This document shows positions 1 through 19,351 of a stretch of DNA of 64,000 bases, piece by piece. Every line of letters begins with the position of its first letter. Within the stretch, counting starts at the first letter, position 1. The notes beneath the pieces are model-generated. The model saw nothing but the letters and a program-made list of their open reading frames with translations, was not told the origin of the DNA and did not search any database. The stretch comes from Yersinia proxima (lineage in GTDB: Bacteria > Pseudomonadota > Gammaproteobacteria > Enterobacterales > Enterobacteriaceae). The stretch covers positions 372,001 to 436,000 of the forward strand of contig NZ_CABHYG010000009.1 in NCBI RefSeq assembly GCF_902170785.1. The letters run 5' to 3'. Both the position numbers and the translations under genes were made by a program.

Positions 1-552
<552 letters not shown>

Positions 553-572
553 AGCAGGGAGGCAGACAACGC

Positions 573-1415
573 ATGAACACGTCACTTGAACTTCTCGAAG
601 AGCACCGGATGTTTGGTGGATGGCAGCAACGCTATCGCCACGCCGCCAGCAGCCTGAATTGCAATATGACCTTCAGCATCTATCTGCCACCACCACGGGA
701 TGATAACCCACCGCCGGTACTTTACTGGCTATCAGGGCTCACCTGTAATGATGAAAACTTCACGTTGAAAGCAGGCGCACAGCGGATCGCGGCTGAGCTC
801 GGGTTGGTACTGGTGATGCCAGATACCAGCCCGCGTGGCGATGACGTACCTAATGATGACGGCTATGATTTAGGCCAAGGGGCTGGGTTCTACCTGAATG
901 CGACACAAGCGCCCTGGTCTGAGCATTTTCATATGTACGACTATGTCAGCCAGGAGCTACCTGCGTTGATCCGCCAGCATTTCAGTGTGAGTGATCGTCA
1001 ATCTATCTGTGGTCACTCAATGGGCGGCCACGGTGCGCTGATGTTGGCATTGCGTAATCCTCAGCAATATCAATCCGCGTCTGCTTTCGCACCGATAGTT
1101 AACCCGTGTCAGGTTCCGTGGGGCCGCAAGGCTTTTAGTGCTTATTTGGGTGCCGATGAAAGTCAATGGTTACAATATGATAGCTGCCATTTACTCACGC
1201 ATGCACAAACCCAGTTGCCAATATTGGTCGATCAAGGAGATGGAGATCAATTCCTTGCCGACCAGTTACAACCGGCAAAATTAGCTGAATTGGCACGTCA
1301 GCGTGATTGGCCTCTAACTCTACGTATTCAGCCGGGCTATGATCACAGCTATTTCACCATAGCGACATTTATTGAAGATCATCTGCGTTTCCATGCGGAA
1401 TACTTACATCGCTAA
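573..1415 (+). CDS. frmB: S-formylglutathione hydrolase
   Basis: Hydrolyses S-formylglutathione to formate and glutathione, the second step of formaldehyde detoxification; cytosolic. The 280-residue length matches the family (esterase D type alpha/beta hydrolase). The nucleophile is Ser149 in GHSMGG, with Asp225 (GDGDQF) and His258 (GYDHSY) completing the likely triad; [11 protein letters not shown] near residues 54-63 is the usual oxyanion-side motif. The ATG at 573 has a GGGAGG ribosome site and lies 20 bp after frmA, so the two are co-transcribed. A strong hairpin with a T tract follows the stop codon and ends the operon. Confidence 0.96.
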
Positions 1416-1453
1416 CGGACATAACTCAGCCGATCAACAATAATAGAAACCTT

Positions 1454-1481
1454 AAAGCTCCTTCGGGAGCTTTTTATTTTA
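1454..1481 (+). terminator. Rho-independent terminator of frmAB
   Basis: An 8-bp stem AAAGCTCC/GGAGCTTT closes a TTCG tetraloop and is followed by a T-rich run. It separates the frm operon from the AT-rich darobactin cluster. Confidence 0.9.
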
Positions 1482-1677
1482 TTGCAGATATATAGTTTAT
1501 TCTCGTTACGCTAATAACTAATATTCCTTTAGTTTAATAACATAATTAATAAATTATTATAAAAAGCATGATGAAAAAAACATTGATAAAATCGGAGAAA
1601 AGAATTACAAATAAAGGGCTCAATACTCACCGAGGCTGAGCAGCACAAAAAAGGAAAAAATTTAAAAGGAGATTTAT
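1482..1677 (+). promoter_or_regulatory. AT-rich leader with candidate darA promoter and ribosome site
   Basis: No gene is seen here. A candidate sigma70 promoter is TTGATA (1583-1588), a 17-bp spacer and TACAAA (1606-1611); the -10 match is weak and other AT-rich hexamers are nearby. GCTCA (1618-1622) and TGAGC (1637-1641) could form a small leader hairpin. The ribosome site AAGGAG at 1666-1671 lies 6 bp before the darA start and is the strongest in the cluster. The start of low-GC composition right after the frm terminator suggests that the insert begins here. Confidence 0.4.
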
Positions 1678-1878
1678 ATGTTTACTGCAAATCAATCAAA
1701 AGAAAGAATAAATAACGCTCATTTAATGGCATTAAAGACTAAGTTAGAGTCGTTAGAACAATCATTTAAAAATAATTCATTTTCTATAAATGACCATGAA
1801 ATAGAAAACCTAAAACGCAACAACGCCAACAACCAAATAACCGCATGGAATTGGTCAAAAAGTTTTACACAACAATAA
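1678..1878 (+). CDS. darA: Darobactin precursor peptide with WNWSKSF (darobactin A) core
   Basis: This 66-residue peptide is the substrate of the radical SAM enzyme encoded downstream. Residues 57-63 read WNWSKSF, the amino-acid sequence of darobactin A. In the mature compound the first and second Trp are joined by an aryl ether and the second Trp and Lys by a carbon-carbon bond. Residues 1-56 form a polar leader ending in QITA; residues 64-66 (TQQ) are a short C-terminal tail that must be removed. From memory the leader end and tail position match Photorhabdus DarA (ITA before the core). It lacks a double-glycine site, so maturation probably uses host proteases. Established: darobactins bind BamA of Gram-negative bacteria. 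A hairpin after the gene may keep its transcript more abundant than the rest. Confidence 0.95.
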   Translation: MFTANQSKERINNAHLMALKTKLESLEQSFKNNSFSINDHEIENLKRNNANNQITAWNWSKSFTQQ

Positions 1879-1910
1879 ATCAAACAATGATGCTTTTAAT
1901 TAAAACAAAT

Positions 1911-1934
1911 TAAGATGCTATTAGTAGCATCTTA
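1911..1934 (+). terminator. Hairpin between darA and darB, probable attenuator
   Basis: A perfect 10-bp stem TAAGATGCTA/TAGCATCTTA with a TTAG loop is followed by an AT-rich stretch (ATTATAATAATTATTA) rather than a pure T run. It lies in the 141-bp gap between darA and darB. Partial termination here would give a high precursor-to-enzyme ratio, as is common in RiPP operons; it could also protect the darA message 3' end. Confidence 0.6.
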
Positions 1935-2019
1935 ATTATAATAATTATTATCGTTTGATGAATTTTAGAAAAAAACAACACCATCACTCTATTTCATTAA
2001 AATCAGTGAGATATTTCCC

Positions 2020-4380
2020 ATGCTAACAAGTGAATTCTTCAATGATCTGAAGCTAAGTCCAGCATCAAGTCTGTTAGCAATACTAATAACAGCTATTGGA
2101 TCGATCTCACTATTTTTTGTATTACTTCTTTATTTAACTGATTCTCATATTGAAAAACATAATAGTAACCATAAAGACATATATAGGGTAGAAACATCAT
2201 TTAATCTACCTAACGGCGATGAAGTGAAGTCAGCACAAGTACCCTTCCCACTGATTTCAGTACTAAGAAATGATAGAAACATCAAAAGTGTTGATTACAT
2301 CGTGCGTATTTTCACCCATGTACACGTTAATGATAAGACGTATTCAAATATTGATATCTATGCGGTTAGCAACGATTTTTTTAATACATTAAATCCTTAT
2401 CAACAAAAAAATCTTTCTCTGACGCAGAATGAAATTATCATTACCCCTGAGTTTAATCGACAATATCTTCATCTGGATAACCCTCAAGGGCGTGTCATAA
2501 CATTAGGTGATAAAGGCCAATTTCTTATTAAAGATGTTGTTGAATTTAATCCATCCAGCCGTTTTAAAACGACTGCCGTTATCGCATTCTCTCCTGAAAT
2601 ATTAGATAGTTACCACGATAAAAGACATGATTGGTATGATACCCATGCCTACGCTTTTATCACGATGAAATCTGGGATGAGTCCCACCCCAGAGCAACTA
2701 AATTCTTACGTTATCCAGCATGCACCACAACTTCCTGGTGCCCCTTTTAGCCCCGAAGAATTCATTCAACTTTCTGCACGTAATATTACTGATATCCATT
2801 ATGACAATGCATTACCCGATGAAATCAGCATAGTCGTTTCAAGCTCATACTTAAATATTTTATACGCCTCAGGTCTGTTTGTTTTTTTTGCTACGACAAT
2901 GAATTTCTTTAATATTAACAATGTGATAAATACAAAAAAAAGAAACAGCTTTTATATTAAAAAGGCCGTTGGTGCATCAAACTACCAGCTAATCACTGAA
3001 GCATTTTTCATTGCAACATTACAAACTGCATTTGTGTTGTTAGTAGCTCTACTTATCTTGATGTCACTCGTGCAATATTCAGATAGCGTCAAAGAGCTTA
3101 TCTTTACGCATGGGAATCATAACTTCTCAACCGCGTTGCCTATTACTACAGTGCTAACTTATGCCGCTATTCTACTCGCCCACAGCCTCTTTTTACTGAC
3201 GCTTACTTTGCCCAATAATACCTATACTGTGAAATCATCTCAGTCACGCTATATGACTCGTATTATGTTCTGCATACAGATTATTCTTGCAGGAATCATC
3301 ATATACCTGTGGGCTGGCATAATGACACAGATCCATTTCATGAAAAATGACAACTTTGGTTACGAAAAAGAGAATGTAATAACATTTATATTAAGTGATG
3401 AACTAAAATCGAAAACCGCAATAAACAACCTGCAAGATGAATTAAGGAGTATAGCTGGTGTTAATAATATCTCTTTAAGTAACTGGCGACCATTTGACAT
3501 GTCGCGGCATAATACCTCTGTATTCCATAATAACCAGCAAGAAAAAGACAAACTAGCCACAGTTAACATCCTTAAAGTAAACAAAAACTTTATTAACACT
3601 TGGGGGGTAAATATTTTGGCTGGTGATGAAACCCCCTTATTACCCAGCGATAACAGCAACATTTACCATGCTGTTGTTACAAAATCATTTATGGAATTAA
3701 TGGGACAACAGTCCTATGACCATATACTGAGCACTGAATTTTATATTAATGAGAATAACGTGCAGCAACCAGTTAGGGTGCTGAAAGTAATAGATGACTT
3801 TTATCTGGCAGATCGAAGTGACACACCGCCGCCCTTACTTATCCTCATTCAAAACAACCCCCAACGCTATGGCGCAGTCAAACTTAAAAACATTCAAGAT
3901 TTCGGGAAAGTAGAGAAAGTATTAAATAGCTATCATGTTAATACTGAACACATAAAGTCTGTCAACAACTTACACAAAGAATATTTTAGTAATAATATAC
4001 TTATGTATAATACGATCAATACAGTAACATTATTTTCAGTAATTCTGGTCTTAATAAGCACGGTAATAATAAGTACCTCAGAGACCAAACGACTCGAAAA
4101 AACACTAGCAATCATGGAGTCTATTGGTGGATCAATTTATACGCATATTATTTTCTTTATACAACAGAATATTATACCTATCATCATAGCAGTAATAATA
4201 TCATTACCTATCGGCTTTCTGTTATTGCATAATTGGCTAACACAATACAGTTTAATTAAAAAATCATCTTACATTTATGCGACAGGTTTATTTACTGCTT
4301 TTATTTTATGCATAATTATTGTCATGACAACTACACTTATTTTTAATTGTAATACACTCAAAAATCAGAAGAAGAAGTAA
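2020..4380 (+). CDS. darB: Darobactin ABC exporter, FtsX/MacB-type permease
   Basis: A 786-residue membrane protein of the MacB/FtsX permease type. One membrane segment lies near residues 17-39, followed by a long extracytoplasmic domain (about 45-275). Then come a cluster of four segments (about 280-432), a second large soluble domain (about 435-665) and three C-terminal segments (about 665-780). This is the tandem FtsX architecture that works with a periplasmic adaptor and a LolD-like ATPase instead of pumping through a classical exporter. The likely job is export of the modified peptide, which also protects the producer. darC starts 4 bp after its stop. The ribosome site is weak. Base composition is as AT-rich as the rest of the cluster. 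Confidence 0.88.
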   Translation: MLTSEFFNDLKLSPASSLLAILITAIGSISLFFVLLLYLTDSHIEKHNSNHKDIYRVETSFNLPNGDEVKSAQVPFPLISVLRNDRNIKSVDYIVRIFTHVHVNDKTYSNIDIYAVSNDFFNTLNPYQQKNLSLTQNEIIITPEFNRQYLHLDNPQGRVITLGDKGQFLIKDVVEFNPSSRFKTTAVIAFSPEILDSYHDKRHDWYDTHAYAFITMKSGMSPTPEQLNSYVIQHAPQLPGAPFSPEEFIQLSARNITDIHYDNALPDEISIVVSSSYLNILYASGLFVFFATTMNFFNINNVINTKKRNSFYIKKAVGASNYQLITEAFFIATLQTAFVLLVALLILMSLVQYSDSVKELIFTHGNHNFSTALPITTVLTYAAILLAHSLFLLTLTLPNNTYTVKSSQSRYMTRIMFCIQIILAGIIIYLWAGIMTQIHFMKNDNFGYEKENVITFILSDELKSKTAINNLQDELRSIAGVNNISLSNWRPFDMSRHNTSVFHNNQQEKDKLATVNILKVNKNFINTWGVNILAGDETPLLPSDNSNIYHAVVTKSFMELMGQQSYDHILSTEFYINENNVQQPVRVLKVIDDFYLADRSDTPPPLLILIQNNPQRYGAVKLKNIQDFGKVEKVLNSYHVNTEHIKSVNNLHKEYFSNNILMYNTINTVTLFSVILVLISTVIISTSETKRLEKTLAIMESIGGSIYTHIIFFIQQNIIPIIIAVIISLPIGFLLLHNWLTQYSLIKKSSYIYATGLFTAFILCIIIVMTTTLIFNCNTLKNQKKK

Positions 4381-4384
4381 CATC

Positions 4385-5647
4385 ATGGATATAGATATTG
4401 AGCAGAAAAAAAACAAAAACACAGCGGCTAAGTTAATAGTTTTTTGCGTATTATTGGCAGTAACCGCTAGCCTTTATTATATTTATAATGTATCTAGAGT
4501 TCAGCGAAATTTACTGATATCTCGGGAGGATACTGTTTTTCATACTATTCAATCTGAAGTATATCAGGATGTACTGACAACCCGAGCCATCGCGGTTCCT
4601 AAAGGAAGCATAATTGTATCAAGTGAACGAGGAGGAAAGGTCACTGAAGTCGCTAAACAGGCTTTCGATACCGTCATGAAAGGTGATGTTATTGTCCGTT
4701 TATCTAATTACGATTTCATGCTGGAAGCCACATCCAGAATAGTAAATATTACTGAGCAGATAAACAATCTTCGCAATATGAAAATACAATTAGAACAAGA
4801 TAAACGAGAGACAAAACTTAATTTACAAGAGGATCAACATCAAATAACGACTATTTCCAAAGACTTAGAAAGGCATCAAGTCCTCGATATGAAATCAATG
4901 ATTGCAAAATCTGAGTTAGAAAACCAAGTCGGTATGTTAAAGAACTGGCAAATAAAAAGTGAAATATTAAAAGAACACGATAATAAAAACAAAGAGTCAT
5001 TCCCCTCACAATTCAAAAGTATAGATGATTCTATATTATTACTGGAGAAAATGATGGATATCATTGAAAATGGTATGGAGCAATTAGTTATAACAGCCCC
5101 AATTGATGGGAGTTTATCTATCCTTGATGTAGAGTTGGGTCAACAAATAAAACCTGGTGAAAAAATAGCAATAATAGATAACATGCAATCATACTATTTT
5201 AATGTTTACTTCAGTGAATATTATCTTGATAAAATCAAACCAAAAACTCGAATCATTGCAACAATAAATGGTAAAGATACACCACTGTTGATTGAGTCAG
5301 TATCAACTATTGTTGAAAATGGAAAATTAAAGGCGAAGCTGATCCCACTACATGACACTACCTCCCAGCTTAAAAGAGGGCAATCTATTGAAATACAAAT
5401 TCCATTGCAAAAAAATAATACCCCTGTGTTAATGGTGCCTACTGAGAGTATTATCTCTGATAATAATGGAAATTATTTCATCTACATATATCAGCCAGAA
5501 GATGACCTTGCTATTAGATCTAAAATAGAAATAAAGCGCCGAAGCTCCATGAAAACAGAAGTAATATCTGGAGTAAAAACTGGGGAAATCATTGTTATCC
5601 CGCCAGAAACCAACAATAGTGAATACGATATTATTGAGTTTAAATAA
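4385..5647 (+). CDS. darC: Darobactin exporter membrane fusion protein (HlyD family)
   Basis: A 420-residue periplasmic adaptor. A short cytoplasmic N terminus is followed by one membrane anchor (about residues 15-35), a lipoyl-like half (about 70-110), a helical hairpin with heptad-like Lys/Glu/Gln-rich sequence (about 110-225), the second lipoyl half (APIDGSLSILDVELGQ) and beta-barrel domains to the C terminus. Such proteins link inner-membrane FtsX-type permeases to an outer-membrane channel; none is encoded in the cluster, so a TolC-like partner from elsewhere is inferred. The gene lies 4 bp after darB and one base before the darD start, so translation is likely coupled. Confidence 0.88.
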   Translation: MDIDIEQKKNKNTAAKLIVFCVLLAVTASLYYIYNVSRVQRNLLISREDTVFHTIQSEVYQDVLTTRAIAVPKGSIIVSSERGGKVTEVAKQAFDTVMKGDVIVRLSNYDFMLEATSRIVNITEQINNLRNMKIQLEQDKRETKLNLQEDQHQITTISKDLERHQVLDMKSMIAKSELENQVGMLKNWQIKSEILKEHDNKNKESFPSQFKSIDDSILLLEKMMDIIENGMEQLVITAPIDGSLSILDVELGQQIKPGEKIAIIDNMQSYYFNVYFSEYYLDKIKPKTRIIATINGKDTPLLIESVSTIVENGKLKAKLIPLHDTTSQLKRGQSIEIQIPLQKNNTPVLMVPTESIISDNNGNYFIYIYQPEDDLAIRSKIEIKRRSSMKTEVISGVKTGEIIVIPPETNNSEYDIIEFK

Positions 5648-5648
5648 C

Positions 5649-6308
5649 ATGCTAAATATACAAAATGCTGAGAAATGTTATACCACCAAAACAATTAAAA
5701 CCAAGGTTCTTAATCATCTAAATTTCAGCGTTGAGAAAGGTGATTTTGTTTCTATTATGGGGCCATCAGGTTCAGGAAAATCCACATTACTTAATATCAT
5801 TGGTTTGTTTGACTCTCTTGATAATGGCTCATTTACACTGGCGAAAAAAAACATTATTGGCATGAGCTACTCACAGAAAGTAATATTAAGGAGATTATTA
5901 ATAGGTTATGTATTTCAATCATTCAACCTCATTTCACACTTATCTATTTTTGATAACATTGCCTTACCACTTAAATACCGAGGTATTGGCAAAAAGGAAC
6001 GTACCGAAAAAGTTAACCAAATTTTAAACCTGTTCGACATTGATAACCGGAAAAATCACAAACCAATGCAACTTTCAGGAGGCCAACAACAACGAGTCGC
6101 TATTGCCAGGGCAATGGTGTCTAATCCTACATTGCTCTTGGCTGATGAACCTACTGGCAATTTAGATAGTAAAAATGCCCGAGCGGTATTACAGCAATTA
6201 AAATATATAAACCAAAAAGGTACTACTATCATTATGGTTACACATTCAGATGAAGCCTCTGCATATGGCAACAGAATAATAAACATGAGAGATGGAAAAC
6301 TTACATGA
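5649..6308 (+). CDS. darD: Darobactin exporter ATP-binding protein (LolD/MacB-like)
   Basis: A 219-residue ABC ATPase that powers the DarB permease. Walker A GPSGSGKS is at residues 38-45, the Q loop at Gln90, the signature LSGGQQQ at 142-148, Walker B LLLADE at 162-167 and the switch His at 199. The longer in-frame ORF begins at 5592 inside darC, but the ATG at 5649 directly follows the darC stop (one base between) and gives the normal N terminus of the LolD/MacB ATPase family, so that start is used. The gene ends 17 bp before darE. Confidence 0.9.
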   Translation: MLNIQNAEKCYTTKTIKTKVLNHLNFSVEKGDFVSIMGPSGSGKSTLLNIIGLFDSLDNGSFTLAKKNIIGMSYSQKVILRRLLIGYVFQSFNLISHLSIFDNIALPLKYRGIGKKERTEKVNQILNLFDIDNRKNHKPMQLSGGQQQRVAIARAMVSNPTLLLADEPTGNLDSKNARAVLQQLKYINQKGTTIIMVTHSDEASAYGNRIINMRDGKLT

Positions 6309-6325
6309 AAAAATAGGAATATACT

Positions 6326-7657
6326 ATGGATAATATGATTCTGGTAAAATATATCGATTGCATTAAGATAAAAGAAATAGATCTAAAAAAACTGGAAAAA
6401 CTCGACACATGTGAATATAGAATGCTATCATCTTATCTTATTGGTAAGATACCAGCCCAAAAATTACTGGATAGTAATGAGTTAGATATATTCAACGAAG
6501 AGATAAAGAAAAGTATTTCAGTGAAAAAGATTCAAGCAAAAAAATTGGTTGTTGTATTGAAGGCAACCCGTTTATGTAATCTTCGTTGTACTTATTGTCA
6601 CTCTTGGGCAGAAGGCCCCAATCAAACATTGTCATTTCATACACTTGTCCATACTGTACGGCAGATCCTGGCCATTCCTAATGTAAATAGATTTGAGTTT
6701 GTCTGGCATGGCGGTGAAATCACACTACTAAAACCGGCATTTTTTAAAAAACTCATTTGGTTGCAGCAACAATTTAAACGGCCAGAGCAATATATAACCA
6801 ACACCATGCAATCAAATGTAGTTAATATTTCAGATGAGTGGTTAATATTTATTAAAGGTATTGGTATGAATGTCGGAATTAGTCTTGATGGTGTACCGGC
6901 TGTCAATGATAGGAGGCGGGTAGATTATCGAGGCAGAAAGACATCCGATCGCATAGCAAAAGGAATAAAAAAACTTCGCGAGTATAATATTCCATATGGT
7001 GCTCTTATTGTTGTTGACCGAGAAGTTTATCAAACTGACATGAAAGAAATGTTGGACTATTTTATCTCAATAGAATTAACCCACATTGAGTTTCTTAATA
7101 TAGTTCCTGATAATAGACTCCTTAAAGGCCAGTATGTCGGTGATGGGTTTATCAGTTATGCTGAATTTATCCAGTTTCTCTCAGAACTGTTTACTCTTTG
7201 GGTAAACGGTTATCAGGGAAAAATACATATTGCTGTTTTTGATGATTTTATTCGTGTATTAAAAAATGCTAAAAATAAACCTGCTGCATGTTATTGGTCT
7301 GGCAATTGCTCGCAAGAAATTATCACTGTAGAACCCAATGGAGACATCTCTCCCTGTGACAAATATGTAGGTGATAAAGGTAGCATCTACGGTTCTTTAT
7401 TAGATACTGACCTGGCGGATCTTTTAGCTCATTCATCGCATAATCAACAAGCCATCAATGAAGAAAAAGCGGCAACTGAAAAAATGCATAATTGTGAGTG
7501 GTTTTCTATTTGCCACGGGGGTTGTCCCCATGACCGCGTTATTAACCGCCGACATACCGAAGGATACAACGATACATGCTGCGGAACGGGGAAATTACTG
7601 GCAACTATTCAGCAATATTTAGTCAGTAGTGACCGAAACCAGATTATAGTGACTTAA
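6326..7657 (+). CDS. darE: Darobactin synthase, radical SAM/SPASM crosslinking enzyme
   Basis: This 443-residue enzyme is expected to install both crosslinks in DarA. The radical SAM cluster motif CNLRCTYC supplies Cys84, Cys88 and Cys91, followed by the SAM-binding region near HGGEIT (129-133). The C-terminal SPASM domain has Cys322, Cys328, Cys344, Cys390, Cys396, Cys400 and Cys418/Cys419, enough ligands for two auxiliary 4Fe-4S clusters. Residues 1-75 are a basic N-terminal extension that could act as the leader-binding (RRE-like) domain. Established for the family: DarE makes the Trp-O-Trp ether with oxygen from O2 and the Trp-Lys C-C bond. It is the last gene of the operon and has an AGGAA ribosome site. 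Confidence 0.93.
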   Translation: MDNMILVKYIDCIKIKEIDLKKLEKLDTCEYRMLSSYLIGKIPAQKLLDSNELDIFNEEIKKSISVKKIQAKKLVVVLKATRLCNLRCTYCHSWAEGPNQTLSFHTLVHTVRQILAIPNVNRFEFVWHGGEITLLKPAFFKKLIWLQQQFKRPEQYITNTMQSNVVNISDEWLIFIKGIGMNVGISLDGVPAVNDRRRVDYRGRKTSDRIAKGIKKLREYNIPYGALIVVDREVYQTDMKEMLDYFISIELTHIEFLNIVPDNRLLKGQYVGDGFISYAEFIQFLSELFTLWVNGYQGKIHIAVFDDFIRVLKNAKNKPAACYWSGNCSQEIITVEPNGDISPCDKYVGDKGSIYGSLLDTDLADLLAHSSHNQQAINEEKAATEKMHNCEWFSICHGGCPHDRVINRRHTEGYNDTCCGTGKLLATIQQYLVSSDRNQIIVT

Positions 7658-7746: not shown

Positions 7747-8286
7747 CTAAAAAGCTGATCCGGGTTGCAGTAGAAAAGCCTGCTCCTCGGCACTGGAAAC
7801 TCGTCCAAGAATATGATTGCGGTGAGGGTAGCGGCCGAAGCGATCAATAATTGCTTTATGGCGCAATTCATAATCGAGTTGAGTCTCATTACCTAGTTCG
7901 GTATATAGCTTCAATGCTTGCTGATGAATTAGCGCGGATTCTGAATGCATAAAGGGTAAATAGAGAAACCCCCGCTGCGTATCTGATAACTGCCCGGCTT
8001 TGCCACTGCTGACCGCTTCTTGTGCCAGCACCAAAGCCATACCATCACAGGAAAAAGAAGTGGGTAAATCGCGAAATAGATTTCGGCTAAATTGATCTAA
8101 TATCAGAATTTCTGCCAAGCGTCCCTCAATATTCAGCCGCCAGTGCGCCAGTTCGCCCTTAGAGGCAGCCTGCCAAATAGCACCGAAATTCTGACGTAAA
8201 TGGGTGTCAAAATCCTCATCTTTTTTGAACCACAACTCAGGGTTTATCTCACTAAACCAGAATTTCAGAATTTTTTGATAATCCAT
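7747..8286 (-). CDS. DUF924 family protein
   Basis: A 179-residue soluble protein of unknown function. The WFSEINPELWFKKD N terminus, LILDQFSRNLFRD centre and GRYPHRNHILGR C-terminal motif mark the DUF924 family, an all-helical fold. The longer ORF starts upstream, but the ATG at 8286 has a GGAGGT ribosome site and the family's usual MDYQKILKFW start. The gene is divergent from moeA, with about 200 bp between the two starts. Its codon use and composition are ordinary for the chromosome, so the AT-rich dar insert ends before this gene. No function can be inferred from the neighbours. Confidence 0.85.
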   Translation of the reverse strand: MDYQKILKFWFSEINPELWFKKDEDFDTHLRQNFGAIWQAASKGELAHWRLNIEGRLAEILILDQFSRNLFRDLPTSFSCDGMALVLAQEAVSSGKAGQLSDTQRGFLYLPFMHSESALIHQQALKLYTELGNETQLDYELRHKAIIDRFGRYPHRNHILGRVSSAEEQAFLLQPGSAF

Positions 8287-8485
8287 ATTACCTCCAGTTT
8301 CACCTGACGAAGAAAATACCAATAAAAAGGAATGATACAACTCAGACAGTATCAGACTGTGGCCTCTTTGCCCCCCATCAATTCACCCGCATAGCAATCT
8401 CTGCCATAATGGCGCACTTAATTGATTATTGCCGCGCACCCGTTATAGTTTCTGGCGACGGTGCCATCAGACCACGGAGTCCCGC

Positions 8486-9721
8486 ATGGATCACTGTAAT
8501 ACCTCGGATTTACTCTCTCTGGAACACGCTCTGACCAAAATGCTGTCACAGGTCACGCCATTACAGACCACCGAAACCATTGCACTCACTGATGTTGCGG
8601 GGCGCATCACAGCCAGCGCAATCACATCCCCGATTGCCGTACCCCCTTTCGCTAACTCAGCCATGGACGGTTATGCTGTGCGTTGTAAAGAGCTTAGCAG
8701 CACAATGCCGTTACCAGTGGCAGGCAAAGCCTTCGCCGGTGCACCATTTAGAGATGAATGGCCGGCAAATAGCTGTATTCGAATTATGACTGGCGCTCCT
8801 ATCCCCGCAGGTGCGGATGCTGTCATCATGCAAGAACAAGCCGTAGTGAGTGAACAAGGTGTCACTTTCAGTGGTAATACCCAGGTTGGGCAGAACATTC
8901 GGCTGGCAGGTGAAGATATCCAGCAAGGGGCGGCTGTTTTCCCCGCGGGCGTCAAACTCGGTGCGGCGCAACTTCCCCTCCTGGCATCACTAGGGATTGC
9001 TGAACTGACTGTTTTCCGCACATTGAAAGTGGCTATTTTCTCTACCGGCGATGAGTTGCAGCCAGTTGGGCAACCCTTGGGAGAAGGGCAAATTTACGAT
9101 ACCAACCGCTTTGCGGTTCGTTTGATGTTGCAACAGTTAGGTTGCCAAATTATTGATCTGGGTGTTATCCGTGATGACCAACAGGCATTACGCAAAGCAT
9201 TTGAGCAAGCTGATGCCGTCGCCGATTTGGTTATTAGTAGTGGTGGCGTTTCTGTCGGTGAAGCCGATTACACCAAACAGATGCTGGAGGAACTGGGTGA
9301 TATTGGTTTCTGGAAGTTAGCCATAAAACCCGGCAAACCTTTTGCTTTCGGTAAATTGGATCATGCCTGGTTCTGCGGCCTACCGGGTAACCCAGTCTCT
9401 GCGGCGCTGACATTTTATCAGTTGGTACAACCACTGATTGCGAAACTTTCCGGCCACTCTCAATGGCAGCCACCGCTACGTTTGAAAGCAAAAACAATAA
9501 CGAAGTTGAAAAAAACACCAGGCCGTTTGGATTTCCAACGTGGCATTTTCTCAACTAATTCTCGCGGCGAACTGGAAGTACGTACCACTGGCCATCAAGG
9601 TTCACATATCTTCAGCTCATTCAGCCAAGGTAACTGTTTTATCGTGCTTGAGCGGGAACGTGGTTCGGTAGAAGTCGGTGAAGTTGTTGAAATAGAGTTG
9701 TTTAATGAACTATTACGCTAG
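8486..9721 (+). CDS. moeA: Molybdopterin molybdenumtransferase MoeA
   Basis: Inserts molybdate into adenylylated molybdopterin, the last step of molybdenum cofactor synthesis; cytosolic. The ATG at 8486 gives 411 residues, the length of E. coli MoeA; the ORF extends 19 codons upstream without family similarity. [13 protein letters not shown] (53-65, with the active-site Asp61) and the molybdopterin-binding motifs STGDEL and [12 protein letters not shown] are present, then KPGKPFAFG and GLPGNPVSA. moeB follows 36 bp downstream, as in E. coli, so the two form an operon. Confidence 0.96.
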
Positions 9722-9757
9722 TTGATTATTGGCGTAATAAATTACTGAGAGCCTGAT

Positions 9758-10522
9758 ATGTTGCCTGAACTTTCCGATGCGCAAGCCCTGCGTTATAACC
9801 GGCAGATTGTCTTACGTGGTTTTGATTTTGACGGTCAGGAAAAACTGAATGCCGCTAAGGTATTAATTGTTGGATTAGGTGGCCTCGGGTGTGCCGCAGC
9901 ACAATATCTGGCGGTAGCTGGTGTGGGTCATCTCACTCTGCTGGATTTTGACCGGGTTTCTCTTTCCAACCTACAAAGGCAGGTTCTTCACCGTGATAAC
10001 CGTATCGGCATGGCTAAGGTAGCTTCTGCGACACTGACTTTGTCTGAGATGAATCCCAACCTGATAATCAAAACCATTGATGCCCAGTTAGATGATGAAC
10101 AACTTGCCATTGCCATAGCTGAACATCAATTGGTGTTAGATTGTACCGATAATGTCGCCAGTCGTGAGCAACTTAACCGCTTATGCCATGCACAGCGTAA
10201 ACCATTGGTTTCAGGTGCGGCGATCCGTATGGAGGGGCAAGTCAGTGTATTTACCTATCAAGAGGATCAGCCGTGCTATCGCTGCCTGAGCCGGTTGTTT
10301 GGTAATAACGCCCTAACCTGCGTTGAAGCTGGAGTCATGGCTCCATTAGTGGGTATTATTGGCAATCTACAAGCGATGGAAGCCATAAAGTTACTGGCCG
10401 ATTATGGACAGGTGATATCAGGTCGTATACTGATGTATGACGCCATGACAGCAGAGTTTCGGAGTTTAAAACTGGCAAAAGACATCAACTGCGAAGTTTG
10501 TAGCAACAGCGGGTTGGAATAA
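9758..10522 (+). CDS. moeB: Molybdopterin-synthase adenylyltransferase MoeB
   Basis: Activates the C terminus of MoaD by adenylation for later thiolation; cytosolic, ThiF/E1-like fold. At 254 residues it is close to E. coli MoeB (249). The nucleotide-binding loop GLGGLGC is at residues 39-45, the Asp131-containing DCTDN motif follows, the zinc ligands are Cys173/Cys176 (CYRC) and Cys245/Cys248 (CEVC), and Cys188 is the conserved extra cysteine. It is the second gene of the moeAB operon and is closed by a strong hairpin. Confidence 0.96.
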   Translation: MLPELSDAQALRYNRQIVLRGFDFDGQEKLNAAKVLIVGLGGLGCAAAQYLAVAGVGHLTLLDFDRVSLSNLQRQVLHRDNRIGMAKVASATLTLSEMNPNLIIKTIDAQLDDEQLAIAIAEHQLVLDCTDNVASREQLNRLCHAQRKPLVSGAAIRMEGQVSVFTYQEDQPCYRCLSRLFGNNALTCVEAGVMAPLVGIIGNLQAMEAIKLLADYGQVISGRILMYDAMTAEFRSLKLAKDINCEVCSNSGLE

Positions 10523-10852
10523 ATGGCTGACAAACCTATTTTATAGCATCAAGAGAACTGTACCCTGAGGGAGGCTCATGGCCTCCCTTAGTTTTGGAAT
10601 TCCGAAATTTTAAGGACTATCTATTATTTTACTTTCTTAAGAAATAAGGCCGTAAGTTACACCGGGAGACTTATTTACCATTATTTTCCATAACTTTTTT
10701 TGAATTTTTTTGACTTTCTTGTGCTCTGCATTAGTCCAATAGTTGAGTCAAGAATTTATGTACTAAGATACTTTCCTCACGAATTCTTTCTTAACTTAAT
10801 TCAATCTTCATCTGCATATTATTGGAGTTGAATGCTATCCGGAGATAGTATT
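10523..10852 (+). other. Intergenic region moeB to M60 protease
   Basis: After the moeB terminator there are about 255 bp of AT-rich sequence with runs of T and A and no credible ORF. This is the likely promoter region of the secreted protease; no single promoter stands out. Two starts compete at its end: ATG 10832 (GGAG only 4 bp away) and ATG 10853 (GGAG at 10841-10844, 8 bp away). Confidence 0.5.
10565..10596 (+). terminator. Terminator of moeAB
   Basis: A 7-bp GC stem GGGAGGC/GCCTCCC with a TCATG loop is extended by weaker outer pairs and followed by GTTTTGG. It lies 43 bp after the moeB stop. Confidence 0.85.
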
Positions 10853-12841
10853 ATGTTTCGCCCTGCTTTTCGCAATACGCCTATTGCCCTGAGCCTATTA
10901 ATGGCACTGAGCTTTTCCTCTACGTTATCTGCAGCTATTGCAGATGTTCCGAGCAATATATCAGTTCAGCGAGCTGAAACTGCAAATAGTAATATTACAT
11001 CTGAAGCATCACGGCAAATTCGCTTGGTTCAAAATGGTTCACCACTATATTGGAATGAGCAACAAAAGCGTCAATTCCTTACTCATCCAACGCAATCCAG
11101 CGGCTTCTGGGCTAACAAAGGTGATAACCTACGTATTGAATACCAGCATCAAGGGGAAGATATTGATGTATTGCCTGAGCTGTGGATTGTGCCGGTTAAG
11201 AAAGGCAAAGAAGAAAACTTTGAACGGCAGGTAGTTAAACTGCAACAAGGCATCAATGAAATTGAAGTTGAGAATACCGGCCCACTTTATTTTGTAGCAG
11301 CTAACCAACAAGGTAGCAGTGAGATCAAGATTAATCTGCTCGAGGGTGGCAAACCGATGCCACGCTTTATTCTGGGCGAAAATACCATTGAAGATTGGCA
11401 AGCACAGTTAGTGAAGTTTGGGGATTCACCTTTCGCTGAACTAGTGGGTAAGCGTATGATCCTCACCATGCCAATTAAAAATATGCGTAAACAAGCGACT
11501 GATCCTGAGGGAGTTTTGGTCTTGTGGGACCGTATTGTCGACCTGGCGGAAGAACAATTTGGACTCAGCACCGAGAAAGCCTTCCCCCATCGAGCTACAC
11601 CTTTCCAATATCAATTTGTCGGTAAACCAGATAGCACATCAGGTTATATGTCAGCATCCAATTACTGGCTAGGTTCTAATGCTGCTGGCTTTTTGGAAGT
11701 CATTAATACCTATAAATTACAAAATAATGGTTGGGGGTCATGGCATGAGTTGGGTCACCACTATCAAATGCCAGCATGGACATTTGATAGTGATATAGAA
11801 GTTACGGAAAACCTGACTTCATTGTATGTTCAGCGTGCTTTAGGCGGAACTTCGCGTATGGAAGCAGAATCACGTTGGGATGAAATTGCTGATTTTCTGA
11901 ATAAAAGAAGCAAAAAATATGAAGATGGCGACGTGTTTGTCCGTTTAGGTATGTTTTGGCAACTGGATTTAGCATTTGGTAAAGACTTCTACCAACGCCT
12001 TGGTGACCGTTACCGCACGCTAGCTGCCGCTGAATGGCCAAAAAATGACGATGAGAAAAAACAACGTTTTCTGCTGGAAACCAGTCGTGTTGCTGGCATT
12101 AACCTAAAATCATTTTTCCATAAGTGGGGAATAAAACCGACAAAAGAAACCAGCGCCCAATTAAAAGCAATGAACTTGCCAGACCTAAGGGAGCCTATTT
12201 GGGAGAATAGAGACAGTAATATTGCCTACAGTTATTCGTTAACCCAGCAAAATATCACCGGAGATGTACGCCTGCCTGATACAGTTAATGTGGGGGATAT
12301 CTTCACCGTAGCTGTCGAAGTTACGAACCGTAATACATCAACCTTGACTTACCAGTGGGATATTCCAAAAGGTGTTGAAGTTATTACGGATAATGGTAAA
12401 GAAATAACTCTGCGAGCACCACATAATGTATTACAAAATACCATGCTATCTATTCCTGTTACGGTAACAGATAGCAATAATATCGCAATGAGACTGGCAA
12501 GCTCGATTCAATTGAAAACGCCAGGTGAAAATATTTCTCCCCGCGAGGCTTATGATCAACTAATTAAGCAGCGTTACAAATTAGAGGGTGACCTTAATCA
12601 TTGGGATAGTGCATCACATCAAGGCAGCCCAGGCACTATCTATTTATACGATAACCATTACACAGGAACTCGTGATTATTTCCGTTTAAAAACGAGTTCG
12701 TATTGGTATTTCCCAACGAATCAAACCAGCAATACATATTGGGAATATTTGGAGAGTTACGATAGTAACCAATATCTGAATGACGATGTTATTAAGCAAG
12801 TCACGGCGATCACATCAGCAGCAAAACCCGATGAGAAATAA
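10853..12841 (+). CDS. Secreted M60-family (enhancin-like) zinc metalloprotease
   Basis: A 662-residue protein with a signal peptide (MFRPAFRNTP, hydrophobic IALSLLMAL, cleavage near residue 27-30). The zinc site is HELGH at 298-302 with the third ligand likely Glu319 in VTENL, the spacing of peptidase family M60, whose members cut mucins and other glycoproteins. Residues 75-175 look like the beta-rich N-terminal domain usual in M60 proteins. About 480-560 is an immunoglobulin-like beta region (VNVGDIFTVAVEVTNRNT), and the C terminus may bind substrate. The start at 10853 was chosen by ribosome-site spacing; 10832 would add seven residues. It stands alone between terminators. A role in mucus or peritrophic-matrix breakdown is inference. 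Confidence 0.85.
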   Translation: MFRPAFRNTPIALSLLMALSFSSTLSAAIADVPSNISVQRAETANSNITSEASRQIRLVQNGSPLYWNEQQKRQFLTHPTQSSGFWANKGDNLRIEYQHQGEDIDVLPELWIVPVKKGKEENFERQVVKLQQGINEIEVENTGPLYFVAANQQGSSEIKINLLEGGKPMPRFILGENTIEDWQAQLVKFGDSPFAELVGKRMILTMPIKNMRKQATDPEGVLVLWDRIVDLAEEQFGLSTEKAFPHRATPFQYQFVGKPDSTSGYMSASNYWLGSNAAGFLEVINTYKLQNNGWGSWHELGHHYQMPAWTFDSDIEVTENLTSLYVQRALGGTSRMEAESRWDEIADFLNKRSKKYEDGDVFVRLGMFWQLDLAFGKDFYQRLGDRYRTLAAAEWPKNDDEKKQRFLLETSRVAGINLKSFFHKWGIKPTKETSAQLKAMNLPDLREPIWENRDSNIAYSYSLTQQNITGDVRLPDTVNVGDIFTVAVEVTNRNTSTLTYQWDIPKGVEVITDNGKEITLRAPHNVLQNTMLSIPVTVTDSNNIAMRLASSIQLKTPGENISPREAYDQLIKQRYKLEGDLNHWDSASHQGSPGTIYLYDNHYTGTRDYFRLKTSSYWYFPTNQTSNTYWEYLESYDSNQYLNDDVIKQVTAITSAAKPDEK

Positions 12842-12856
12842 GTAGAGTTCTGTAAA

Positions 12857-12911
12857 GCAGGGGAAACCCTGCCTTTAGACAGTAGAGCTGATGCCATCAA
12901 TGCATCAGCTC
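12857..12911 (+). terminator. Two hairpins after the M60 protease gene
   Basis: GCAGGG/CCCTGC (12857-12872) closes a GAAA tetraloop. GAGCTGATGC/GCATCAGCTC (12885-12911) is a perfect 10-bp stem. Neither has a strong T tract. They lie between convergent genes and probably limit read-through from both sides. Confidence 0.5.
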
Positions 12912-12935
12912 TCATATCAACACGCAGTCATATAA

Positions 12936-14531
12936 TCAGGATTGAATACCTTGGCTACGCAGATAGTCTTCGTAGTTACCGGTAAAGTCGATCAACTTAC
13001 TTGGCGTCATTTCAATCACTCGGGTCGCCAGTGAACTGACAAACTCACGGTCATGGGAAACGAAGATTAACGTACCTTCATACATTTCCAATGCCATGTT
13101 AAGGGCTTCAATCGATTCCATATCCAAATGGTTGGTTGGCTCATCCATTACCAAAATATTAGGGCGCTGCATCATCAGCTTGCCAAACAGCATCCGCCCT
13201 TTTTCACCACCCGACAAGACCTGTACTTTCTTCTTGATATCGTCCTGGCTGAACAGTAAACGGCCCAGCACACTGCGCACAGCCTGCTCGTCGTCCTTTT
13301 CCTGTTTCCACTGACTCATCCAGTCAAATACCGTCAGATCAATTTCAAAATCACTGGCGTGGTCCTGTGCATAATAGCCAATCTTGCTGTTTTCAGACCA
13401 TTTCACAGTACCAGCATCTGCTTCATAATCCCCGACCAGGGTTTTGAGTAAAGTCGATTTACCAATACCGTTCGGCCCAAGAATAGCGACTTTTTCACCC
13501 ACTTCCAGGCGCAGATTCAGGTTTTTAAACAGTGGACCGTTATCAAAACCTTTAGTCAGCATTTCAACTTCCAGCGCATTACGGAACAACTTTTTATCCT
13601 GATCAAAGCGGATAAACGGATTTTGGCGGCTAGACGCTTTCACTTCATCAAGCTGAATTTTATCAATCTGACGAGCGCGTGAAGTTGCCTGTTTGGATTT
13701 AGAGGCGTTGGCACTAAAGCGGCTGACGAAAGATTGCAGCTCGGAAATTTGGGCCTTTTTCTTCGCATTATCAGAGAGTAGACGCTCGCGAGCTTGTGTC
13801 GCCGCAGTCATGTATTCGTCATAGTTACCCGGATAAACACGCAGTTCGCCGTAATCCAAATCCGCCATGTGGGTACAGACCATATTCAGGAAGTGACGGT
13901 CATGGGAAATAATGATCATGGTACTGCTACGTTCGTTCAGAACTTGTTCCAACCAGCGGATAGTATCGATATCCAGGTTGTTGGTCGGTTCGTCGAGTAA
14001 CAAAATTTCTGGATCTGAGAACAAAGCCTGTGCCAGCAATACACGCAATTTAAAGCCAGGCGCAATTTCGCTCATCAAACCATAATGCTGTTCAACTGGA
14101 ATACCGACACCCAGCAGCAATTCACCAGCACGGGCTTCTGCGCTATAACCATCCATTTCACCGTAGGCAACTTCCAGATCAGCCACTTTATAGCCGTCTG
14201 CTTCGCTCATTTCAGCCATGGCGTAAATGCGATCGCGCTCTTCTTTCACTTCCCACAACTCGCCGTGACCCATAATAACTGTGTCCAGCACTGTGTTGTT
14301 TTCAAAGGCGAATTGATCCTGACGCAACTTACCCAGACGCTCATTAGGGTCGAGGAATACGTTACCGGCACTTGGTATCAGATCACCACCAAGGATTTTC
14401 ATGAATGTGGATTTACCACAACCATTAGCACCGATCAGGCCATAGCGATTACCGCCACCGAATTTTACTGAAATGTTCTCAAACAGCGGCTTGCTGCCGA
14501 ATTGCATGGTGATATTGTTAGTACTTAGCAC
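12936..14531 (-). CDS. ybiT: ABC-F family ATPase YbiT
   Basis: A 531-residue soluble protein with two ABC ATPase domains and no membrane segments; ABC-F proteins act on the ribosome rather than as transporters. Walker A motifs are GANGCGKS and GPNGIGKS, signatures around [13 protein letters not shown] and LSGGEKGRM, Walker [12 protein letters not shown] and [11 protein letters not shown], and the linker between the domains is Lys/Arg-rich ([15 protein letters not shown]). The sequence follows E. coli YbiT (530 residues) throughout. The longest ORF begins at 14642, but the GTG at 14531 gives the family N terminus ([11 protein letters not shown]). The gene converges on the M60 protease gene. 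Confidence 0.92.
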
Positions 14532-18421: not shown

Positions 18422-18949
18422 TTAGAAAGTGTAACCAACGCCAGCAACCCAAGTACCAACGTCAACGTTACGGATGCGGCTCTGTTCGTAAGAAACGTCC
18501 AGGGCAACATTTTGCATTGGGTTAAACTGCAAACCTGCGCCGTAGGTGAAACCGTAATCGCTGGTGCTGTTCTTGTCGCTAAGAGATGTTGGGTAGTTCT
18601 GGCTGAAACGGCCATAACCCACACCAACCAGGCCATAAACGCTAGCCCAATCGTTGATACGGTAAGCTGGGCCAGCTGTGATGGCGTTGTATTGTGCTTT
18701 GTTGTAAACAGACGCGCTGTCGCCGAAGCTGCTTTTTTCAGTGTGAGTGAAAGAGGTGATATAACCCAGTTGAGAATCACTCCACTCATAACGGTATTTC
18801 AGGTTGAAACCTGAAGATTTGTTAGCAACACCTGAGTAATCGCTCTGGGCATAACCACCAGAAACGGTGCTTTGACCTGCAAAGGCTGAACCTGCGGTCA
18901 CTGCTAATACACAAGCTGCTACAGCTGAAAGACATGCAATTTTATTCAT
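18422..18949 (-). CDS. ompX: Outer membrane protein OmpX (Ail/Lom family)
   Basis: A 175-residue precursor with signal peptide ending AFA-GQ; the mature chain forms an eight-strand outer-membrane beta-barrel. The motifs FNLKYRYEW, ITAGPAYRINDWASVYG, YGAGLQFNPMQNVALDVSYEQSRIR and C-terminal GVGYTF closely follow E. coli OmpX. The ATG at 18949 with GAGGTGG upstream was chosen over the in-frame GTG at 18955. In Yersinia, OmpX and Ail are adhesion/serum-resistance proteins; this one is in the OmpX map position next to rhtA, so it is the housekeeping member. A long leader region lies upstream. Confidence 0.95.
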   Translation of the reverse strand: MNKIACLSAVAACVLAVTAGSAFAGQSTVSGGYAQSDYSGVANKSSGFNLKYRYEWSDSQLGYITSFTHTEKSSFGDSASVYNKAQYNAITAGPAYRINDWASVYGLVGVGYGRFSQNYPTSLSDKNSTSDYGFTYGAGLQFNPMQNVALDVSYEQSRIRNVDVGTWVAGVGYTF

Positions 18950-19351
18950 AACCACCTCGAAAGACGCAAATTTTTAGATGAAACTAAAACACCATGAAAT
19001 TATAACAAAAAGTAGCGTGAAACTCTGCTTACTAATGATTGTCTAATCATTTATTTGGTGTAACAAAGAGTTTCAAGCATCATCTATCCTACTAATACAC
19101 TTATGAATTTTGGCTATGTTACTCCTTTTTGTGACATTCATCACCAAAACCTATTCCAGACTATTCTTAATTTTATCGCTCAATAAAACAACAGAAGCAG
19201 CGTTAAAAAACAGCAAGATCAGAAACAAATTATTTATTTTTTTATTTTTTCCCCTTTGTTATGTCCATCAGTAATTTTTAAACACTCAATCGACATTTCA
19301 TTTACACTGGCAAGGATTGATACCGACTATTTTTCTTTGAGGCTCAAAAGG
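18950..19351. other. Divergent intergenic region ompX / rhtA
   Basis: About 400 bp, AT-rich, without a credible gene. It must hold the ompX promoter and 5' leader (the strand running left) and the rhtA promoter. The ORF that includes rhtA extends to 19256, but those 32 codons lack family similarity. No terminator or strong palindrome was seen. Confidence 0.4.

What the first reader, a model, noticed from the sequence alone, without database searches (positions are those of the whole stretch)
1678..1878. Darobactin A precursor in a Yersinia chromosome
The 66-residue peptide carries WNWSKSF (residues 57-63), identical to the darobactin A heptapeptide. It sits first in a five-gene unit with an exporter and a radical SAM/SPASM enzyme, the order of the Photorhabdus dar operon (recalled). 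Established: darobactins inhibit BamA. Seen here: exact core, leader ending QITA, tail TQQ. Inference: this strain makes darobactin A. The family is described, so this is a recognised system in a different host rather than a new one.
Basis: partly seen in the sequence, partly recalled or inferred. Interest (0 to 1): 0.93.

Follow-up and report, generated by a model that had tools for sequence, protein, structure and literature searches.

The report
A known darobactin gene cluster, intact
This Yersinia chromosome carries a complete, already described gene set for the peptide antibiotic darobactin A; the same set is common in the genus, so the find is sound but ordinary, and production by this strain is unproven.

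Summary
Window 1678-1878 encodes a 66-residue peptide with WNWSKSF at residues 57-63, first in a five-gene unit. Darobactin clusters in Yersinia, with the A core, are in print: PMC8694152 Table 1 lists a Y. enterocolitica precursor identical at 59 of 66 positions. DarE of Y. intermedia builds the bicycle on an Arg core (PMC9055067). PMC8694152 screened five predicted producers, four of them Yersinia, and detected no compound. Of 25 Yersinia species genomes, all five genes are present in 14, degraded in 6, not found in 4, undeterminable in 1; darE is damaged or missing in all 6 degraded copies. The site behind frmB is shared. BamA shows no carrier-specific residue. A hairpin between darA and darB shows compensatory changes and may keep precursor expression high. 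Verdict: already known; interest low. Side finding: a WNWSKGF precursor beside a complete darBCDE in another genus; that string was in 0 papers of the library.

The parts
1678..1878 (+). darA, darobactin A precursor: leader 1-56 ending ITA, core WNWSKSF 57-63, follower TQQ
   Evidence: NF038004, 82.3 bits, cut-off 45
1846..1866 (+). codons of the heptapeptide core WNWSKSF
1667..1671 (+). AGGAG, ribosome-binding-like site of darA
   Evidence: by reading
1454..1473 (+). intrinsic-terminator-like hairpin behind frmB; suggests that dar has a promoter of its own
   Evidence: the promoter itself is inferred
1908..1937 (+). 13-bp hairpin between darA and darB, conserved with compensatory changes; possible attenuator or RNA-end stabiliser
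   Evidence: (82-base fold, z -5.5); role inferred
2020..4380 (+). darB, export permease with FtsX domain, 786 aa
   Evidence: (NF038008, 1215.7 bits, cut-off 700)
4385..5647 (+). darC, periplasmic adaptor, 420 aa
   Evidence: NF038010, 701.6 bits, cut-off 450
5649..6308 (+). darD, export ATPase, 219 aa
   Evidence: NF038007, 434.1 bits, cut-off 375
6326..7657 (+). darE, radical SAM/SPASM crosslinking enzyme, 443 aa; CNLRCTYC at residues 84-91; 7-9 residues longer at the C-terminus than in 12 relatives compared
   Evidence: (NF038005, 839.1 bits, cut-off 650)
573..1415 (+). frmB, S-formylglutathione hydrolase; left neighbour of the dar site
7747..8286 (-). DUF924 gene; right neighbour of the dar site

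Best explanation
This is an intact Yersinia darobactin A operon, mostly inherited vertically within the genus. DarE, a radical SAM/SPASM enzyme, would install the Trp1-O-Trp3 ether and then the Trp3-Lys5 C-C link on the WNWSKSF core of DarA. Housekeeping proteases would remove leader and follower. DarBCD would export the product, which blocks BamA of Gram-negative competitors, and may also spare the producer. The darA-darB hairpin may keep darA transcript above that of the downstream genes. Shown here: complete genes, family identity, order, site, conservation. Shown in print for relatives: the chemistry and the BamA target. Inferred: expression and production in this strain, exporter-based self-protection, the hairpin's role.
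For: Five of five proteins over curated equivalog cut-offs. CNLRCTYC, the motif PMC9055067 names for the P. khanii enzyme, plus Radical_SAM and SPASM domains. Core identical to that of the P. khanii DSM3369 precursor. Median pairwise dN/dS 0.07-0.12 for darB-E (13 or 14 genomes) and 0.02 for frmB: constrained genes. Pairwise identity of DarB, C, D and E tracks FrmB across 13 genomes (Mantel r 0.68-0.70, 0 of 2000 permutations as high), and 20 of 21 genomes with any dar gene have it behind frmB on the same contig. Hairpin: 33 cells changed on both sides against 11.8 in shuffles.
Against: Published screening of five predicted producers, four of them Yersinia, found no compound (PMC8694152). An Arg-core Yersinia DarE made only the ether on Photorhabdus DarA (PMC9055067), so full crosslinking by a K-core Yersinia enzyme is not shown in any passage I read. 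No promoter stood out: 2 sigma-70-like sites against 3.3 in shuffles, one before the frmB terminator and one inside darA. Hairpin: pairs with double change exceed shuffles only modestly (8 against 6.4; 48 of 500 shuffles reach it).
Confidence: 0.93

Rival explanations
1. The operon is complete but silent, or makes too little to matter: a genus-wide relic on its way to loss.
For: 11 of 25 Yersinia species genomes lack a demonstrably complete set: 6 degraded, 4 with no dar gene found, 1 undeterminable. No product was detected from the five predicted producers screened in PMC8694152.
Against: In this window all five frames are open and darB-E show low dN/dS in the genus. The core is WNWSKSF in 12 of 18 DarA although the leader varies.
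Confidence: 0.3
2. The enzyme makes only a monocyclic, ether-linked heptapeptide on its own precursor.
For: Arg-core Yersinia DarE gave only the +14 Da ether product on Photorhabdus DarA (PMC9055067).
Against: That was a mismatched pair; the same enzyme gave the full bicycle on its own precursor (PMC9055067). Here enzyme and precursor are native to each other.
Confidence: 0.05
3. Chance resemblance: an ordinary radical SAM maturase and an unrelated small ORF.
For: None found.
Against: Curated precursor and enzyme models over cut-off and the same five-gene order in relatives.
Confidence: 0.01

Closest known systems
Yersinia darobactin clusters (PMC8694152 Table 1; cluster III of PMC9055067)
   Same: Core and TQQ follower; DarA identical at 59 of 66 positions to the listed Y. 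enterocolitica A precursor. Same gene content and order in fetched relatives
   Different: Seven leader substitutions against that entry. DarE is 443 aa against 434-436 in the 12 relatives compared
dar operon of Photorhabdus khanii (L131/G161, identified by its DarA alone)
   Same: Order darA-B-C-D-E, WNWSKSF core
   Different: DarE 56%, DarD 60%, DarC 33%, DarB 31% identical to the window; follower QEI
DarW, dynobactin synthase DynA, anaerobic sulfatase maturases
   Same: Radical SAM/SPASM enzyme models matched by the same protein
   Different: All below their own cut-offs: DarW 513.7 against 650, DynA 193.3 against 450, sulfatase maturase 236.9 against 349.45

Membership tests
darobactin A cluster | precursor with a W-x-W-x-K/R-x-F core, here exactly WNWSKSF, over the DarA model cut-off | tested here: met
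darobactin A cluster | DarE radical SAM/SPASM enzyme with CxxxCxxC | tested here: met
darobactin A cluster | DarBCD exporter in the same unit and order | tested here: met
darobactin A cluster | bicyclic heptapeptide of 965.403 Da | not testable with these tools
   needs expression and mass spectrometry; expected mass from PMC8694152
darobactin A cluster | product inhibits BamA | not testable with these tools
   published for darobactin A (PMC8694152 abstract); not for this strain's product
DarW or dynobactin systems | enzyme over the DarW or DynA model cut-off | tested here: not met

The most novel reading that the evidence does not exclude
In Yersinia the warhead genes decay repeatedly at one shared site (darE in every degraded copy seen), while the exporter DarBCD can stay behind alone and under constraint (complete darB, darC, darD in G016 with no darA or darE found), because DarBCD protects the cell from darobactin made by neighbours. 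DarBCD would then be a free-standing immunity exporter.
Probability: 0.12. Interest if true: 0.45.

Novelty: already known. Interest (0 to 1): 0.15.

Why it matters
Darobactin A is a lead antibiotic against Gram-negative bacteria, so a complete natural cluster has some practical use. For knowledge the gain is modest: one shared chromosomal site, frequent loss of darE, no carrier-specific BamA residue, and a conserved darA-darB hairpin. These make two questions, which the passages I read leave unanswered, easier to test: how producers spare themselves, and why Yersinia strains seemed silent.

Tried and rejected
Chance match of the heptapeptide: rejected. Anaerobic sulfatase maturase, DarW or DynA instead of DarE: rejected by cut-offs. 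A solved structure of DarE itself: none among 5 sequences matched at E 0.001 or better; the nearest are anaerobic sulfatase-maturating enzymes. Recent plasmid origin: of 71 plasmid records matched, one is at 60% identity or above (Vibrio crassostreae, 62.6%); only 20 of the 71 were listed to me. Site and divergence fit vertical descent within the genus. Resistant BamA as self-protection: no alignment column separates the 14 carriers of all five genes from the 4 genomes without dar genes. E. coli positions 418-448 are uniform in 25 of 25 Yersinia genomes except 447, with L at 426 and V at 442 where the E. coli strain fetched has F and A. This weakens, but does not exclude, target-based protection. 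Rfam: no family over its gathering score in the window. Exporter-alone idea: median pairwise dN/dS of G016 for darB, C, D (0.122, 0.085, 0.067) lies within or just below the range of the others, but such medians do not isolate its own branch and many pairs are near saturation, so this is weak. No structure prediction or fold search was run; the family assignment did not need one.

Limits of counts. dN/dS used 14 genomes for frmB, darB, darC and darD and 13 for darE, Mantel 13, of 25: G004 was left out as split on two contigs, and the degraded ones except G016; alignment columns with gaps were dropped pairwise. The hairpin count used 16 of 18 sequences: G022 has no hairpin there, G013 duplicates G019 in it, and I chose the stretches around the hairpin myself. 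The double changes fall largely in the same five genomes (G001, G008, G012, G014, G018), so independent events are fewer than cells. darB, darC and darD were sought only in the fetched stretches, not genome-wide.

Full report
What is there. Window 1678-1878 encodes a 66-residue peptide with WNWSKSF at residues 57-63, leader ending ITA and tail TQQ. Four genes follow on the same strand, and all five proteins pass NCBI's curated cut-offs for the darobactin system: DarA 82.3 bits (cut-off 45), DarB 1215.7 (700), DarC 701.6 (450), DarD 434.1 (375), DarE 839.1 (650). DarE has CNLRCTYC at residues 84-91, the motif PMC9055067 names for the P. khanii enzyme, and a SPASM domain. The own genome gave a single DarA match.

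The dar locus of G161 (L131) has the same order. Its DarA is letter for letter the P. khanii DSM3369 entry of PMC8694152 Table 1. Identities to the window are DarE 56%, DarD 60%, DarC 33%, DarB 31%, and DarA 49% over 41 residues.

Already in print. I read passages and section 5 of PMC8694152, passages and part 1 of 2 of section 8 of PMC9055067, passages of PMC10107326, PMC11531245 and PMC12079272, and otherwise search listings only. PMC8694152 states that orthologous clusters occur especially in Yersinia and tabulates Yersinia precursors with cores A, C, D and E. The Y. enterocolitica A entry matches this DarA at 59 of 66 positions. PMC9055067 places mainly Yersinia enzymes in its cluster III and shows by MS and NMR that Y. 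intermedia DarE makes the bicycle on its WNWSRSF precursor. The primary report of 2019 I did not see; I know of it through these papers.

Production is not shown. PMC8694152 screened five predicted producers, four of them Yersinia, and found no consistent activity and no mass. One of them, Y. aldovae ATCC 35236, has a darE whose reading frame is split in its draft record: two overlapping matches in different frames in G001, whose contig has the same length as the ATCC 35236 contig of L009. Draft error is possible, and I put nothing back.

Distribution in the genus. One genome per species, 25 searched. DarA was found in 18 of 25: core WNWSKSF in 12, WNWSRSF in 5, WSWSKSF in 1. DarE-like matches were found in 18 of 25 as well, but not the same 18: they include a fragment in G011, half a gene in G023 and, in G021, only a distant relative (32% identity) elsewhere in the genome. 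frmB was found in 25 of 25, the DUF924 gene in 23 of 25 (partial in G021, interrupted in G006, no match in G022 and G023). Of the 21 genomes with any dar gene, 20 have it behind frmB on the same contig (with a transposase-like ORF between in G007), and 19 have a DUF924 gene or piece of it beyond the dar genes on the same contig; the two without are G022 and G023.

State of the copies. All five genes are present without inner stops or frame splits in 14 of 25: G000, G003, G004 (over two contigs, darB cut at a contig end), G005, G006, G007, G010, G012, G013, G014, G019, G020, G022, G024. The single stops that searches report in some of their darE lie at the C-terminal end, where the window's frame runs on. 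Degraded in 6: G001 (darE split), G002 (only darB 1-83), G008 (darB and darC interrupted, darE 1-69), G011 (darB in four pieces, darE 350-443), G016 (darB, darC and darD complete, no darA or darE found), G018 (darD split, no darE found; darB runs to a contig end). G023 cannot be judged, since half of darE lies at a contig end. No dar gene found in 4: G009, G015, G017, G021. So darE is damaged or missing in 6 of 6 degraded copies, while darA with its core survives in 4 of those 6 (G001, G008, G011, G018). This window holds one of the complete copies.

Descent and constraint. dar genes are AT-rich (29-36% GC against 45-51% in the four neighbouring genes measured; window 44%). This would suit an old import, but identity of DarB, C, D and E tracks FrmB across 13 genomes (Mantel r 0.68-0.70; 0 of 2000 permutations as high), and the site is shared, so descent within Yersinia is mostly vertical. 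Median pairwise dN/dS is 0.116, 0.121, 0.071 and 0.075 for darB, C, D, E against 0.024 for frmB; high dS makes these rough.

Regulation. frmB ends in a terminator-like hairpin (1454-1473), so dar probably has its own promoter, though none stood out (2 sigma-70-like sites, 3.3 in shuffles). Between darA and darB lies a 13-bp hairpin, 1908-1937 (82-base fold, z -5.5). Hairpins follow darA in 17 of 18 Yersinia DarA loci, not in G022. On 16 aligned sequences 91.8% of cells pair (77.9 in shuffles), 33 cells have changes on both sides (11.8 in shuffles) and the covariation score is 0.481 (0.234 in shuffles). Against this, the count of pairs with double change is only modestly above shuffles (8 against 6.4; 48 of 500 reach it), the further pair types are below them (12 against 14.4), and many double changes are shared by the same five genomes. 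There is no terminator-like T-run on the + strand (the scan marks it on the - strand only), so an attenuator or RNA-end stabiliser seems likelier than a full terminator. That role is inferred.

Self-protection. BamA was aligned from 25 of 25 genomes. No column separates the 14 genomes with all five genes from the 4 without dar genes. At E. coli position 426, which PMC10107326 names in the darobactin-binding pocket, all 25 have L where E. coli has F. Being genus-wide, this does not mark producers. Exporter-based protection by DarBCD is the remaining simple idea and is not shown; PMC9055067 saw no effect of DarBCD on synthesis in E. coli.

Verdict. Correctly spotted, correctly named, and ordinary: a complete copy of a published antibiotic cluster in a genus where it is common.

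Noticed in passing
L135 (G308) 7755-13403; L099, L100, L101, L102: DarA-like precursors below the model cut-off with core WNWSKGF (Ser6 to Gly) in 4 genomes (G046, G190, G273, G308) of two other genera of the family. In L135 the precursor gene lies before complete darBCDE, DarE over its cut-off; in L134 (G046) darE is incomplete. The string WNWSKGF was in 0 papers of the library. Possibly an undescribed natural darobactin.
   Followed up: partly
L097/L132 (G258): DarA with core WNWSKAF and follower GGDN beside darBCDE in another genus. That string occurs once in PMC10107326; its context was not read.
   Followed up: partly
L120 (G016) 3315-7650: Complete darBCD with neither darA nor darE found: exporter left alone at the usual site.
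   Followed up: partly
window 6326-7657: DarE here is 443 aa; the 12 intact relatives compared have 434-436, so the frame runs 7-9 codons further here.
   Followed up: no
L110 (G006) about 9574 onward: The two pieces of the DUF924 gene lie about 29 kb apart, as if split by inserted DNA.
   Followed up: no
L111 (G007) 7932-8981: A 349-aa ORF resembling a transposase by eye lies between frmB and darA.
   Followed up: no
window 10853-12838: Peptidase M60 (enhancin-like) protein with HELGHH, downstream of what looks by eye like a moeA/moeB pair.
   Followed up: no
window 18422-18955, minus strand: Small outer membrane protein matching Pfam Ail_Lom.
   Followed up: no
L129 (G023) 11-6055: Two ORFs of 526 and 1474 aa that look by eye like a two-partner secretion pair lie next to a cut-off darE.
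   Followed up: no
Vibrio crassostreae plasmid NZ_AP025478.1, 33829-35040: A DarE on a plasmid (62.6% identity), so the gene can also sit on a mobile replicon.
   Followed up: no
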